DNA of 64,000 nt from Ochrobactrum teleogrylli. Its GTDB lineage: Bacteria > Pseudomonadota > Alphaproteobacteria > Rhizobiales > Rhizobiaceae. The position numbers and the translations under genes are program-made. The notes under the pieces are model-generated. The model saw only the letters and a list, made by a program, of their open reading frames with translations, was not told where the DNA came from and made no database searches. The stretch lies in NCBI RefSeq assembly GCF_006376685.1, contig NZ_VEWL01000004.1, positions 186,001-250,000 on the forward strand, written 5' to 3'. Positions 34,915 to 50,034 of the stretch are shown here, in pieces (positions within the stretch are counted from its first letter, which is position 1; every line of letters begins with the position of its first letter).

Positions 34915-35010
34915 TGGCGGAAGGAAATGGGGGTCGAACCCACCAGAGACCGTCTATCAGCCCCTCCCGGATTTGAAGTCCGGACATGCCACCGGGCATG
35001 CATCCCTTCC
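34915..35010 (-). tRNA. selC: tRNA-Sec (UCA anticodon, selC)
   Basis: On the minus strand the sequence starts GGAAGGGA and ends with the pairing TTTCCTTCC, discriminator G and encoded CCA. This gives the 8-bp acceptor stem that marks selenocysteine tRNA. The anticodon stem CCGGA / TCCGG holds the loop CTTCAAA with anticodon TCA (bases 34976-34974). A long variable arm precedes the T-arm with GGTTCGACC. Total 96 bases including CCA, far longer than ordinary tRNAs. It serves SelA, SelB and the UGA codon in fdoG nearby. Confidence 0.96.
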
Positions 35011-35147
35011 AGATATTGAATTCGTCCCATACTTTCGCACGGGCTAACTGTAGTAACGGGTTATCACCGCGTCAATCTGCGCCGCAGCGTTGGGTGCTAT
35101 TTGTGCTAGTGCCTTCGCGATAGATAGCAGCATGGAATATTCAGAAG

Positions 35148-35276
35148 ATGGAATGGATTCCTGTATTCTTGATAGCGTTCAAGGTTCTCGTGTTGGGCGT
35201 GGCCATGTTCTTCGCCATCAAGTTTCACTACGACGAAGATAAAAAAAAGAAGAATAGCGAGAAAGGCGGGACCTAA
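35148..35276 (+). CDS. Small membrane protein, 42 residues
   Basis: ATG to TAA without interruption. The N-terminal half is a single membrane helix (MEWIPVFLIAFKVLVLGVAM), followed by FFAIKFHYDEDKKK and a basic, polar tail. The architecture (one helix, positive C-terminal tail) is that of a bacterial microprotein, and it reads as protein rather than chance. The ribosome site is weak (GGAA about 10 bases upstream). Unknown function; it lies between selC and the other small genes of the selenium island. Confidence 0.55.
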   Translation: MEWIPVFLIAFKVLVLGVAMFFAIKFHYDEDKKKKNSEKGGT

Positions 35277-35312
35277 CGCCCACTTCAGCCGGGCTTGCCC
35301 GGTTTGTCTCAA

Positions 35313-35420
35313 TCACTGAATGATGCACGTCCCCGGCCAATCGCGGCACGAGCGATTGGCGCATCCGGTGAGGGCTGCCGCCACGATCAGAATGCAAATA
35401 GCTGTCGCCAGTGTCTTCAT
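35313..35420 (-). CDS. Small lipoprotein, 35 residues
   Basis: Starts MKTLATAICILIVAAALTGC, a lipoprotein signal with lipobox LTGC (cysteine at residue 20). The mature part is only 16 residues with two more cysteines, ending GTCIIQ. It is convergent with the 42-residue membrane protein, with a CCGGG/CCCGG hairpin at about 35290-35303 between them. Resembles entericidin-size lipoproteins, but no family is recognised. Confidence 0.5.
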   Translation of the reverse strand: MKTLATAICILIVAAALTGCANRSCRDWPGTCIIQ

Positions 35421-35581
35421 GTTTCGTCACTCATGATCGCTGGGGGTGATCGCTGCCAAACCTCATTGCCAGACTTCGCTGACACTGGGCGTAACGCTAC
35501 ACCAAGCAAGCGTTCCCACCAAGTCTTGATGGCACCCGCGCAGTATGGAAATGTCTGGCTTAAGGACCCCGCGCTGCCCAC

Positions 35582-35764
35582 TCAATCATTCGAACGGTCG
35601 GGATAAGGTTCTTTGGGAACCTTGATATGAGGATTGCCCGGCGCATTTGATTGTTCGTGAGTAGGCTTTTCCTGATGGTCACTCGGTTCCACAGGAGATG
35701 GATCGATAGCTTCTTTCTCTCGTACCAGATCCGGGTCGGACCACGGATTTCGCTTTTGTGCCAT
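35582..35764 (-). CDS. Small hydrophilic hypothetical protein, 60 residues
   Basis: Starts MAQKRNPWSDPDLVREKEAI and continues rich in Pro, Glu, Lys and Asp, with no membrane segment; probably unstructured. A strong AGGAGG lies 9 bases before the ATG at 35764. It follows the 86-residue gene by 16 bases on the same strand, so the two are probably co-transcribed. Function unknown. Confidence 0.6.
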   Translation of the reverse strand: MAQKRNPWSDPDLVREKEAIDPSPVEPSDHQEKPTHEQSNAPGNPHIKVPKEPYPDRSND

Positions 35765-47392: not shown

Positions 47393-47545
47393 CGTGCGAT
47401 ACCTCCCTGATGATCAGAACCGACGTGCAGGGGAAACTTCCCGGTCACGTTGTCGGGCAGGCTTGACTTTCACTTTGGCAGTTCACCGCAATAAGACAAA
47501 GTTGTCAACCGAACCGAAGGGCGAAAAATATAATAACAAAGCCCA

Positions 47546-47574
47546 TTTATATATAACATGACAGGCGTACTCAA
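47546..47574 (-). promoter_or_regulatory. Candidate promoter of the fdo-sel operon
   Basis: On the minus strand TTGAGT (47574-47569), 17-base spacer, TATAAA (47551-47546), in an A+T-rich patch about 155 bases before fdoG. The remaining gap 47393-47824 must also hold the promoter of the divergent transglutaminase gene; I see no clear site for it. Confidence 0.5.
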
Positions 47575-47824
47575 GTATTAATACATGAATGTAATCTTCA
47601 CGATGACTTTCTCTTGTTCGATGGTTGATTGACGGACATAAACAAACACGGCAGACTGCGCGTGTGACTTCTTCCGCTGCTCCCGAGTTTCGGGGCCTTG
47701 ATCACAGATCATTCCTGGCATGCGCTGGTCTTTCCAGGTCGGGCGCAACAGCAGCGCTTTCTCCGCATATTCGTAAGAAACAGAGCTCATGGCTCCCAAA
47801 GAGGGGCCACGAAAGGGGATCGTC

Positions 47825-48937
47825 ATGAATCGTCGGGAACTCCTCAAATCCGGTGCGGCCTGCGCCGCCCTCAGCCTTCTGCCGGGCTTCGCCTTGGCCC
47901 CTGCCTTTGCCGATGACGGCACGTTTACGCCCAAGCCATCGAACTGGCGCAGTTTCGAGATCAGGACAACTGTGAGCCCGACCGCATCCAAGGATGTCAT
48001 TCGGGCATGGGTGCCTTTGGCCGGTTTTCAGGCGGATGACTGGAACCGCCCGGAAGGCAATCGGTGGACGACAAATGCCAGGGTCGCGCAGATCAATCGC
48101 GATCCACGCAGCGGGGTAGGCCTCCTCTATCTCGAATGGGCGCCGGGTGAAGAAACGCCGACTGCGGAAATCATTAGTCTCATCTCGACCCGTGACCGCG
48201 CCAGCAGCCTTGAGGCATCGGCGACCGCCGTGCCGCTGACACAGGCCGAGCGCGCAAAATATCTGGCTGGAACACGGCTGGCACCAGTGGATGGCATTGT
48301 TCGGGAGACCGCAAACAAGATTGTCGGCGACGCCGCAAGTGATCAGGATAAGGCCCGCCGCATCTACGACTGGGTTGTCGCCAACACCTATCGGCGCGCG
48401 TCCACGCGCGGCTGCGGCGACGGCGATATCGTCGCCATGTTGAGGAGCGGTGATCTTGGCGGCAAATGCGCAGATCTCAACCCGCTGTTCGTGGCGCTGG
48501 TGCGCTCTGTTGGCATTCCCGCGCGTGACCTTTACGGGGTGCGGGTGGCGCCGTCCGCTTTCGGTTACAAGAGCCTTGGCGCAAAGAACGAGGTCATCAC
48601 CAAGTCGCAACATTGTCGTGCTGAAATCTATCTCGATGGCGTCGGCTGGGTGGCGACCGATCCGGCCGATGTGCGAAAGGTCATGCTTGAAGAAGAGAAG
48701 GACGGTTTGACAGCGGACGATCCGCGTGTGGTTGCCGTTCGTCAAAAGCTCTTCGGCGCATGGGAAGGCAACTGGATTGCCTTCAATGATGGCAGCGATA
48801 TCGATTTGCCATCTGCGCAGGGCGGGGAGCTTGGCTTCCTGATGTATCCGCAAGCCGAGGTCGCCAGCATGCGGCTCGATTGTCTCGACGCGGACGCTTT
48901 CCGTTATAGCATGACGGCGCGCGAGATCACGATCTGA
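47825..48937 (+). CDS. Transglutaminase-like cysteine protease-fold protein, Tat-exported
   Basis: 370-residue periplasmic protein. The N-terminus carries a twin-arginine-like signal (MNRRELLKSGAACAALSLLPG). The transglutaminase-core triad is visible: Cys in LGGKCADLNPLFVALVRS, His in QHCRAEIYL and Asp in WVATDPADV. ATG at 47825 with AGGGG about 7 bases upstream. It precedes selD by 44 bases on the same strand and is divergent from fdoG. Its substrate is unknown; the context suggests a periplasmic role linked to the selenium/formate system, but this is only positional. Confidence 0.85.
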   Translation: MNRRELLKSGAACAALSLLPGFALAPAFADDGTFTPKPSNWRSFEIRTTVSPTASKDVIRAWVPLAGFQADDWNRPEGNRWTTNARVAQINRDPRSGVGLLYLEWAPGEETPTAEIISLISTRDRASSLEASATAVPLTQAERAKYLAGTRLAPVDGIVRETANKIVGDAASDQDKARRIYDWVVANTYRRASTRGCGDGDIVAMLRSGDLGGKCADLNPLFVALVRSVGIPARDLYGVRVAPSAFGYKSLGAKNEVITKSQHCRAEIYLDGVGWVATDPADVRKVMLEEEKDGLTADDPRVVAVRQKLFGAWEGNWIAFNDGSDIDLPSAQGGELGFLMYPQAEVASMRLDCLDADAFRYSMTAREITI

Positions 48938-48981
48938 TACGAAATAGCATCACGGGAACCGCTTTCGGTTCAGGAGGACCT

Positions 48982-50034
48982 ATGGACATCGCATCGCCCA
49001 TCCGTCTCAGCACTCTGGCGCATGGCGGCGGCTGTGGCTGCAAGCTGGCGCCTGCCGTGTTGCAAAATCTGCTTGCTGATCAGCCCGCCATCCAACCTTT
49101 CAAGCAGCTGCTGGTCGGCACCGAGACCGGCGACGACGCAGCGGTCTGGCAGCTTGACGATGAAACCTGTGTGATCGCCACCACCGACTTCTTCATGCCG
49201 ATGGTGGACGATCCGGTCGATTTCGGGCGTATTGCGGCAACCAATGCCATATCCGACGTCTACGCGATGGGCGGAACGCCCATCATGGCGCTGGCGATCC
49301 TCGGCATGCCGGTGAATCAAATGCCTGCCGAAATGATCCGCCATATTCTGAAAGGCGGTTCCAGCATCTGCGCAGAAGCCGGAATTCCGGTGGCAGGCGG
49401 CCATTCGATCGATGCGCCGGAGCCAATCTACGGGCTGGCGGTGATTGGCACTTGCAAGCTTGCCAATCTGCGCAAGAACAGCGGCGCGAGGCCGGGCGAT
49501 GCTCTCATTTTGACCAAGGGGCTCGGTGTCGGCATCTATTCCGCTGCTTTCAAGAAACAGGTTCTTGATGGTGCCGGTTACGATGAGATGATGGCCTCCG
49601 TCACTTTGCTCAATCGTGTCGGCGCGGAACTTGGCAAGGATGAAGCAGTGCACGCGGTCACCGATGTGACGGGCTTCGGCATTCTCGGTCATGCGCTTGA
49701 AATGGCGCGGGGGTCCAATGTCGGCATCACGCTTCGATACAGTGATCTTCCGTTTTTGGCTCAAGCCGCACATCTTGCCGAACAAGGTTTCATCACCGGC
49801 GCTTCGACCCGCAACTGGGCGAGTTATGGCGATGACGTGCGACTGGCGGACGATACTCCGCTCTGGAAGCAGCAATTGCTGACCGATCCGCAAACGTCGG
49901 GCGGGCTGCTCGTTTCCTGTGCGCCGGATGCGGCTGAGCGCATTCTCGCAATGATCCACTCTGCGGGCCATCCGGCGGCAAATATCATCGGCACGATTGG
50001 CGGAGCGCCAAAAGTCGTGACGGTGGTTGACTGA
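48982..50034 (+). CDS. selD: Selenide, water dikinase SelD (selenophosphate synthase)
   Basis: 350-residue enzyme making selenophosphate, the selenium donor for SelA, from selenide and ATP. The active-site loop GGGCGCKLAP shows Cys (not Sec) and Lys at the expected places. Other family blocks are ETGDDAAVWQ, ATTDFFMPMVDDPVDFGRIAATNAISDVYAMGGTP-type metal/ATP binding, VTDVTGFGILGHA and DPQTSGGLL. AGGAGG before the ATG. It completes the Sec pathway encoded in this window. Confidence 0.95.
   Translation: MDIASPIRLSTLAHGGGCGCKLAPAVLQNLLADQPAIQPFKQLLVGTETGDDAAVWQLDDETCVIATTDFFMPMVDDPVDFGRIAATNAISDVYAMGGTPIMALAILGMPVNQMPAEMIRHILKGGSSICAEAGIPVAGGHSIDAPEPIYGLAVIGTCKLANLRKNSGARPGDALILTKGLGVGIYSAAFKKQVLDGAGYDEMMASVTLLNRVGAELGKDEAVHAVTDVTGFGILGHALEMARGSNVGITLRYSDLPFLAQAAHLAEQGFITGASTRNWASYGDDVRLADDTPLWKQQLLTDPQTSGGLLVSCAPDAAERILAMIHSAGHPAANIIGTIGGAPKVVTVVD

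What the first reader, a model, noticed from the sequence alone, without database searches (positions are those of the whole stretch)
34915..50034. Complete selenocysteine island with its own client enzyme
Seen directly: tRNA-Sec, selA, selB, selD and a UGA-containing fdoG with SECIS, plus fdoH, fdoI and fdhE, all within 15 kb. Selenocysteine use is patchy in alphaproteobacteria. As I recall, a similar order exists on the Sinorhizobium meliloti megaplasmid pSymA, so the block may move between genomes as a ready-made trait. The small genes and FNT channel between selC and selB are A+T-richer by eye, which hints at insertion near the tRNA gene.
Basis: partly seen in the sequence, partly recalled or inferred. 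Interest (0 to 1): 0.8.

Follow-up and report, generated by a model that had tools for sequence, protein, structure and literature searches.

The report
Selenocysteine island with phage-swapped tRNA half
A compact set of genes that lets a soil bacterium use selenium in one enzyme is really there, and its special transfer-RNA gene bears what looks like the scar of a virus that entered at its middle and replaced its front half, a swap that related bacteria also carry.

Summary
In detail: selC, selB, selA, fdhE, fdoIHG (in-frame TGA plus SECIS), a transglutaminase-like gene and selD fill 34915-50034 in a Brucella sensu lato (Ochrobactrum-group) genome.

Mobility is partly supported. 18 of 35 genus genomes carry the block, at four sites; the G006 block groups with the wrong clade. 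In the window's clade of five it is at one site. Its G+C is normal; only the 2.5 kb between selC and selB is A+T-rich.

The main result lies there. In 65 of 73 selA loci selC lies inside or just after selB. In 13 of the 18 sec+ genomes, the window included, selC has a foreign-type 5' half joined to the native 3' half at the anticodon loop, with a tyrosine-integrase gene or a (sometimes faint) remnant of its 3' end upstream. In G003 (B. daejeonensis) a 31-kb prophage sits there, with the 14-bp core at both ends. S. meliloti pSymA shows the same pattern. I read the window's selC as a chimera left by a decayed phage that swaps the 5' half: a known but rare kind of integration. I found no earlier report of it at selC in alphaproteobacteria.

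The parts
34915..34970 (-). selC, native 3' part (variable arm, T arm, 3' acceptor strand)
   Evidence: ARAGORN, Rfam. The 3' part is letter-identical in 14 of 18 sec+ genus genomes (5 native and 9 foreign-type); the window differs from it by 5 letters
34971..34985 (-). crossover core GTCCGGACTTCAAAT (5' anticodon stem and loop)
   Evidence: The 14-bp core occurs once in the window at up to 2 mismatches. It is found at both ends of the G003 prophage, and the remnant 5' half in S. meliloti pSymA ends with it
34986..35010 (-). selC, foreign-type 5' half (acceptor 5' strand and D arm)
   Evidence: Type GGAAGGGAT(A/G)CATGCCCGGTGGCAT in 13 of 18 sec+ genus genomes against GGAAGAGAC(G/A)CGT(C/T)CCTGGTGGGGC in 5
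35047..35075 (-). promoter-like TTGACG-17-TACAGT inside the integrase remnant; candidate selC promoter
   Evidence: 1 found, 1.8 expected in shuffles, so no evidence alone; TTGAC kept in 20 of 21 upstream stretches chosen for a remnant, prophage or displaced half
35056..35093 (-). remnant of the 3' end of a tyrosine-integrase gene
   Evidence: 38 bp, 84% to the G007 integrase gene, E 2.4e-4; local score 46 against a best of 22 in 100 shuffles; 7.1 bits in the integrase-end profile
35313..35420 (-). 35-codon putative lipoprotein ORF, related DNA also between selC and selB in other chimeric genomes
   Evidence: nucleotide matches of 30-115 bp in nine genomes: G019, G011, G034, G006, G002, G009, G033, G008, G020; ORF ends read by eye
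35781..36041 (-). 86-aa ORF of unknown function in the insertion
   Evidence: no Pfam or PHROG match; a 74-bp DNA match near the FNT gene of G019
36257..37066 (-). formate/nitrite transporter family gene (FNT)
   Evidence: PF01226, 168.6 bits. Not found at E 1e-40 in the 4 closest relatives; found in 8 other sec+ genomes on another contig or more than 150 kb from selA, and in 3 sec- genomes. Also phrog_12662, 318 bits
37303..37497 (+). 64-aa ORF with a signal-peptide-like start, in the insertion
   Evidence: translation (read by eye); no PHROG match; the longer frame 37234-37497 has no Pfam match
37517..39481 (-). selB
   Evidence: translation; synteny and 72-91% identity in sec+ genus genomes, in pieces in G002 and G009
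39478..40296 (-). Sel1-repeat gene
   Evidence: PF08238; found in 14 of 17 other sec+ genus genomes
40244..41641 (-). selA
   Evidence: PF03841, 555 bits
41648..42550 (-). fdhE
   Evidence: PF04216
42647..43354 (-). fdoI, cytochrome b subunit
   Evidence: PF01292
43351..44292 (-). fdoH, iron-sulfur subunit
   Evidence: PF13247 and PF09163
44306..47392 (-). fdoG, formate dehydrogenase alpha subunit with in-frame TGA at 46793-46795
   Evidence: two frames joined by one TGA; 77% identity to the pSymA protein
46740..46798 (-). SECIS element
   Evidence: RF01989, 84.1 bits
47789..48937 (+). transglutaminase-like gene that travels with the block
   Evidence: PF01841; matched in all 17 other sec+ genus genomes, over 67% of its length in G009 and 85% in G008, and on pSymA
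48982..50034 (+). selD
   Evidence: PF00586 and PF02769

Best explanation
The island is a selenocysteine kit with one detected client, the Fdo formate dehydrogenase. SelA and SelD charge tRNA-Sec, and SelB with the SECIS inserts selenocysteine at the fdoG UGA (established pathway; inferred here from intact genes). In the ancestral layout selC follows selB directly. A tyrosine integrase of temperate phages recombines at the anticodon loop of selC. Its attP carries the 5' half of a tRNA-Sec, so integration joins the phage 5' half to the host 3' half and pushes the host 5' half, with selB, to the far end of the prophage (anatomy seen in G003, and in G007 on two contigs). In the window the prophage has decayed (inferred). 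The foreign 5' half and the last piece of the integrase gene remain, together with a stretch that holds an FNT gene of uncertain origin. The displaced native 5' half is gone, so the swap could no longer be undone by excision. The tRNA is now a chimera separated from the selB operon. I infer that it is transcribed from a promoter within the integrase 3' end, which would explain why that piece is kept.
For: Two 5'-half types with nearly identical 3' halves in 18 sec+ genus genomes, 13 foreign and 5 native. Native genomes have selC right after selB. G003: 384-aa integrase, terminase, portal, major head and tape-measure proteins, core copies 31.0 kb apart. G007: phage genes on both contig ends, foreign 5' half on one side and the complete native 5' half on the other. 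A related integrase (75%) lies beside selC of G103. Remnants: of 8 selA loci with a selB-selC spacer of 200 nt or more, 7 carry the integrase 3' end 30-95 nt upstream of selC, against 0 of 65 with selC nested or abutting. S. meliloti pSymA: the remnant 5' half ends exactly at the core. IMG/VR contig 3300047160_010463 (16.5 kb): whole tRNA-Sec with a distant third integrase at one end, displaced 5' half at the other. Related integrases lie beside the 5' end of tRNA-Ser(UGA), and two near-identical contigs carry only the tRNA-Ser 5' half next to the integrase, as an attP should.
Against: The window keeps no second core and no displaced 5' half, and its integrase remnant is only about 40 bp, so the event is inferred from relatives. 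No other recognisable phage gene remains; the FNT segment may be an unrelated later insertion. The two sides of G007 are on different contigs and its integrase frame is broken. The remnant criterion (over 1 bit at a fixed place) was set after seeing the scores; two of the seven (L215, L148) score only 1.5 and 1.3 bits, and 4 of the 8 spacer loci are from one genus. E. sesbaniae (L170) has a displaced half but no integrase remnant. In the DNA test the upstream stretches of G030, L038, L027 and L040 do not match the window above shuffles, and G003 barely does. The promoter scan finds one site where 1.8 are expected. In the lowest-energy fold the T arm of the window's tRNA differs from that of the native one. 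tRNA function and phage activity are untested.
Confidence: 0.82

Rival explanations
1. A transposon or IS separated selB from selC, and the half tRNA in selB is a by-product (the published reading for S. meliloti pSymA).
For: An IS630-like transposase lies between selB and selC on pSymA (named from its translation by recall). Mukai 2021 states it.
Against: The remnant ends exactly at the anticodon-loop core, and the intact selC has another 5' half with an integrase-like stretch beside it (weak, E 0.04). A prophage with the same geometry is seen in G003. The IS may be a later guest.
Confidence: 0.06
2. The two 5'-half types are ordinary divergence or gene conversion, and the spacer is an unrelated insertion.
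For: The exchanged part is short (25 nt), and both types form good D-arm stems, as in ordinary tRNA evolution.
Against: Native and foreign types are mixed in two clades, 3' halves are near-identical, all 13 foreign types have the spacer and an integrase end and none of the 5 native types has a spacer, and G007 holds both 5' halves at once.
Confidence: 0.06
3. The whole selC-selD block is one mobile island that entered at selC.
For: Four sites in one genus with the same block; G006 block in the wrong clade.
Against: selC is part of the block at all four sites, and the phage scar lies inside the block. No recombinase or repeat came to notice at the selD end, but I did not search for one systematically.
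Confidence: 0.06

Closest known systems
fdoGHI-selABCD cluster of Sinorhizobium meliloti pSymA and other alphaproteobacteria (Mukai 2021, PMC8124441)
   Same: Same genes and order. pSymA also has a separated selC with a remnant 5' half
   Different: Mukai attributes the remnant to a transposon; I find an integrase-like remnant and a chimeric selC. Five of the 18 sec+ genomes of the genus still have the native selC right after selB
tRNA-gene genomic islands with a 5' fragment (Islander, PMC4383910)
   Same: Anticodon-centred crossover, tyrosine integrase, displaced 5' fragment; 159 of 3919 islands have a 5' fragment (passage)
   Different: Here the target is selC directly after selB, and the swap separates it from that operon; most cases are scars rather than whole islands
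selC islands of enterobacteria (LEE, phiR73 and others; recalled)
   Same: Same tRNA gene as target of tyrosine integrases
   Different: Those restore the 3' end of selC (recalled); here the 5' half is exchanged
tRNA-dependent lysogeny of actinobacteriophages (PMC10865867)
   Same: Phage makes up for damage to a host tRNA gene
   Different: There a whole phage tRNA is supplied and the host gene is not rebuilt, with a core of about 10 bp (passages); here the host gene is rebuilt as a chimera

Membership tests
Selenocysteine-decoding trait (selABCD plus client) | selA, selB, selC, selD and a UGA/SECIS selenoprotein | tested here: met
fdoGHI-selABCD cluster as on pSymA | gene content and order | tested here: met
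   selD was not seen in the 18 kb of pSymA examined
tRNA-targeting island with 5' fragment, window | integrase gene next to the rebuilt tRNA | tested here: inconclusive
   only a remnant of about 40 bp
tRNA-targeting island with 5' fragment, window | displaced tRNA fragment with core at the far end | tested here: not met
   no second core in the window at up to 2 mismatches and no native 5' half in 33-39 kb at up to 7; hence a scar, not an island
tRNA-targeting prophage with 5' fragment, G003 (B. daejeonensis) | integrase, phage structural genes, core duplicated, tRNA rebuilt, displaced 5' half | tested here: met
Enterobacterial selC islands | exchange of the selC 3' end | tested here: not met
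   3' halves are shared; the 5' halves differ
tRNA-dependent lysogeny | host tRNA not rebuilt | tested here: not met
   a whole tRNA-Sec is called at the junction in G003 and G007
Functional tRNA-Sec | chimera is charged and decodes UGA | not testable with these tools
   passes the Rfam gathering score; predicted folds; no assay

The most novel reading that the evidence does not exclude
Temperate phages repeatedly rewire the selenocysteine system of Rhizobiales. By swapping the 5' half of selC at the anticodon loop they take the tRNA out of the selB operon and put it under a promoter that lies within the 3' end of their own integrase gene. When the phage decays, that integrase end is the one piece kept by selection. 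If so, half-tRNA remnants such as the one on pSymA, and the TTGAC-bearing integrase ends in 20 of 21 examined upstream stretches, are fossils of phage-driven regulatory change.
Probability: 0.4. Interest if true: 0.7.

Novelty: new variant of a known kind. Interest (0 to 1): 0.55.

Why it matters
It offers an explanation for the published half-tRNA remnant in the S. meliloti selB gene and for the spacer between selB and selC in some species. It turns the idea that a selC nested in selB balances SelB against tRNA-Sec into a natural experiment, because related genomes have selC directly after selB and apart from it. It also shows that a tRNA gene can be a mosaic whose two halves have different histories, which matters for tRNA phylogenies and for the reading of tRNA fragments in genomes.

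Tried and rejected
Rejected: the 3' end of selC as the repeat (the shared core is the anticodon loop). Rejected: the block as compositionally foreign. Rejected: the FNT gene as a regular part of the Fdo module (found in 12 of 35 genus genomes; in the other 8 sec+ ones it is on another contig or more than 150 kb from selA). Outside the FNT gene (36243-37158 at most) the only match near those FNT copies is 74 bp of the 86-aa ORF in G019 (only 1.5 kb on each side was held). A first rpoB tree was useless because the loci were on mixed strands; it was redone with one strand. One search covered a mistyped pattern and shows nothing. The exact phage-type half was not found in IMG/VR (0 matches). The shorter core gave 12 stretches: L227, L228, L232, L230 and L238 show a tRNA-Sec half or whole, the other 7 (L229, L231, L233-L237) look like chance. 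Rows dropped: one search returned the best 80 of 357 confirmed selA loci; 5 of the 80 had no selC called by ARAGORN, and 2 more had no selB distance. G002 and G009 are low-quality assemblies with broken frames; G023 has no rpoB match at the limit used. L278 and L279 (23-26% identity) were not examined. Weaker SelA-family matches (67 bits or less) were not counted as sec+. Promoter scan: no excess over chance.

Literature: searches (0 papers; 20 of 25 listed; 20 of 37; 20 of 159; 2; 5; 2; 10 of 97); only the listed titles and abstract starts were seen. None of those describes phage exchange of the selC 5' half in alphaproteobacteria. Read: PMC8124441 parts 1 and 2 of 3; passages of PMC4383910, PMC10865867, PMC11476347 (which holds neither 'selenocysteine' nor 'tRNA-Sec') and PMC1794560. 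Williams 2002 (PMC100330) is not held.
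Full report
OBSERVATION. The block exists as described. tRNA-Sec lies at 34915-35011 on the minus strand. fdoG is split by one in-frame TGA under a SECIS_3 match of 84.1 bits, the only such match in the own genome. fdhE, fdoI, fdoH, selD and the FNT gene have Pfam matches; SelA has one match in the genome. A Sel1-repeat gene and a transglutaminase-like gene belong to the block as well: the second is matched in all 17 other sec+ genus genomes (in part in G009 and G008), the first in 14 of 17 (not found in G003, G013, G030).

WHERE IT IS. 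Named contigs of the same length as those of the unnamed relatives (Brucella pecoris = G011, B. daejeonensis = G003, B. grignonensis = G006, B. tritici = G019, Ochrobactrum sp. Q0168 = G024 and others) place the genome in Brucella sensu lato, Ochrobactrum group. Because the genus includes listed pathogens, I describe and compare only.

DOES THE BLOCK MOVE? A SelA match of over 400 bits (in two pieces in G002 and G009) is present in 18 of 35 genus genomes, the window included; all other matches have 67 bits or less, apart from the second pieces of G002 and G009. tRNA-Sec matches above 68 bits occur in 34 of 297 genomes drawn from the family, with a gap down to 53 bits where other tRNAs begin (counted by eye from the list). 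In the genus the gene order is constant, but the flanks fall into four groups. Ten genomes share both flanks (site A; G033 and G013 only the first 1-4 kb on the right), and G003 shares the right flank only. The window and G005, G007, G024 and G028 share site B, between pcaF and a CNNM-type gene. G006 and G021 share no flank of note with any other within the 6-8 kb compared. On an rpoB tree sec+ needs four changes, and the five site-B genomes form one clade (100/100). The block of G006 is 92.2% identical to that of G033 while their rpoB genes are only 90.4% identical; for the pair G033-G034 it is the other way round (90.4 and 94.5). G006 groups with G002 in the block tree (SH-aLRT 100, quick search) but with sec- G012 in the rpoB tree (100/100). 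So the block has very likely moved sideways at least once in the genus, and it is inherited at a fixed site within the window's clade. This agrees with the statement of Zhang et al. 2006 that transfer of the trait needs clustered selA, selB and selC together with a selenoprotein gene (passage).

THE STRETCH BETWEEN selC AND selB. It is 52.6% G+C, the lowest of 615 sliding windows. In G005, G024 and G028 it does not exist: selC starts 5 bp after the selB stop (G005 read by eye). In 65 of 73 selA loci with a measured distance, selC is nested in or abuts selB (distance up to 61 nt; 7 of the 80 loci could not be measured), as Mukai 2021 reported for many alphaproteobacteria. FNT is present at E 1e-40 in 12 of 35 genus genomes; none of the four nearest relatives has it.

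THE CHIMERA. Cut at GTCCGGACTTCAAAT, the anticodon stem and loop, the 18 selC genes of the genus have five 5' parts in two clear types (13 foreign, 5 native). The 3' part is identical in 14 of 18 and differs by 1-5 letters in the others; the window is the most different. With the foreign half and the common 3' part the acceptor stem has one G-U pair; in the window the 3' strand has changed so that the G-U pair sits at another position (reading). Predicted folds: native G024 and chimeric G034 have the same cloverleaf; the window's lowest-energy fold has a different T arm but the same other arms.

THE AGENT. In G003 (B. daejeonensis) the foreign half is followed by a 384-aa tyrosine integrase, then terminase, head, portal and tape-measure genes. 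The exact 14-bp core occurs in selC and again 31.0 kb away, followed by a displaced 5' half. That displaced half is itself of the foreign type and has what looks by eye like another integrase end behind it, so the site seems to have been used before. In G007 phage genes lie on both contig ends: one side has the foreign half in a whole selC, the other the complete native half. Its integrase is in two overlapping frames. Within site B native and foreign states alternate on the tree, so there were at least two entries, or one entry and precise excisions. The integrase was found at E 1e-50 in 3 of 35 genus genomes: G003, G007 and sec- G032.

SCARS. A profile of the last 75 residues of four integrases was run on 700 nt before each selC. 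A forward match of over 1 bit that runs to near the profile end 30-95 nt before selC is found in 7 of 8 loci with a spacer of 200 nt or more and in 0 of 65 without (Fisher p 5e-9). The cut-off was set after seeing the scores, L215 and L148 pass it with only 1.5 and 1.3 bits, and four of the eight loci come from one genus, so the p value overstates the case. In the genus all 13 foreign-type genomes show the integrase end in the alignment, with profile scores from 1.3 to 168 bits. The window's own remnant scores 7.1 bits in the profile and 46 against a shuffle best of 22 in a DNA alignment with G007. The G030 upstream stretch gave no DNA match to the window above shuffles (19 against 26), nor did L038, L027 and L040; G003 was marginal (29 against 28); in G034 the best match is the lipoprotein-like ORF, so for it and the other genus genomes the scores do not test the integrase end. 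In pSymA the remnant 5' half at 11193-11232 stops exactly at the core, and the whole selC at 15716 has another 5' half and an integrase-like stretch before it (48% over 23 residues, E 0.04). NFR07 and A. terrae have integrase-like stretches with E 1e-4 and 9e-5. E. sesbaniae (L170) and G304 (L223) have displaced 5' halves about 3 kb from selC; in G304 the displaced piece runs past the core into the 3' part, and both 5' halves are of the same type.

FREE AND RELATED ELEMENTS. Contig IMGVR 3300047160_010463 has a third, distant integrase (29%) before a whole tRNA-Sec at one end and a displaced 5' half at the other. Of 39 IMG/VR loci with a related integrase that I examined (of 41 found), 19 have sequence beyond its stop. 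15 of these have tRNA-Ser(UGA) there in the same direction, 1 has it cut by the contig end, 2 near-identical ones carry only the 5' half up to the anticodon loop, and 1 has neither. The family therefore seems to exchange 5' halves of long-arm tRNAs, and one branch uses tRNA-Sec. Islander counts 159 islands with a 5' fragment among 3919 (passage), so the kind is known and rare.

THE PROMOTER IDEA. With selC cut off from selB, the element must supply transcription. In 20 of 21 upstream stretches compared (chosen because they have a remnant, a prophage or a displaced half; intact integrases included) TTGAC is found 60-165 nt before selC: usually at 110-121 nt, at 88 in G019 and G009, at 64 in the window and G034. 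L170 lacks it. Some remnants begin only just before it. In intact integrases this is coding sequence, short remnants would escape detection, and the scan shows no excess over chance, so this remains a hypothesis.

VERDICT. An ordinary selenium kit that moves now and then, with a tRNA gene made of two halves of different origin. The second point is the reason to follow it up.

Noticed in passing
window 35313-35420: A 35-codon lipoprotein-like ORF; related DNA lies between selC and selB in nine other chimeric genomes. It may be the end of the lost phage or a later resident.
   Followed up: partly
L226 14059-14394 (pSymA): The selB-selC spacer of pSymA holds an ORF that resembles by eye the window's 86-aa ORF (35781-36041); the two spacers may have received the same kind of small gene.
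   Followed up: no
L130 340-413 (G019): 74 bp of the window's 86-aa ORF match DNA about 1.1 kb from the FNT gene of G019, so the 86-aa ORF and FNT may travel together.
   Followed up: no
L058 17179-17300 (G003): Beyond the far end of the G003 prophage, the displaced 5' half is of the foreign type and is followed by an apparent integrase-end remnant: signs of serial use of the site.
   Followed up: partly
L221 1460-2781 (G032, sec-): An integrase 63% identical to the selC one sits beside the 5' end of tRNA-Ser(UGA) in a genus member without the block.
   Followed up: partly
L230 and L238: Two IMG/VR contigs carry a tRNA-Sec 5' half with a distant integrase on the other side of the core, perhaps a further integrase type at this site.
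   Followed up: no
window 39478-40296: The Sel1-repeat gene between selA and selB was not found in G003, G013 and G030, so it is an optional part of the operon.
   Followed up: no
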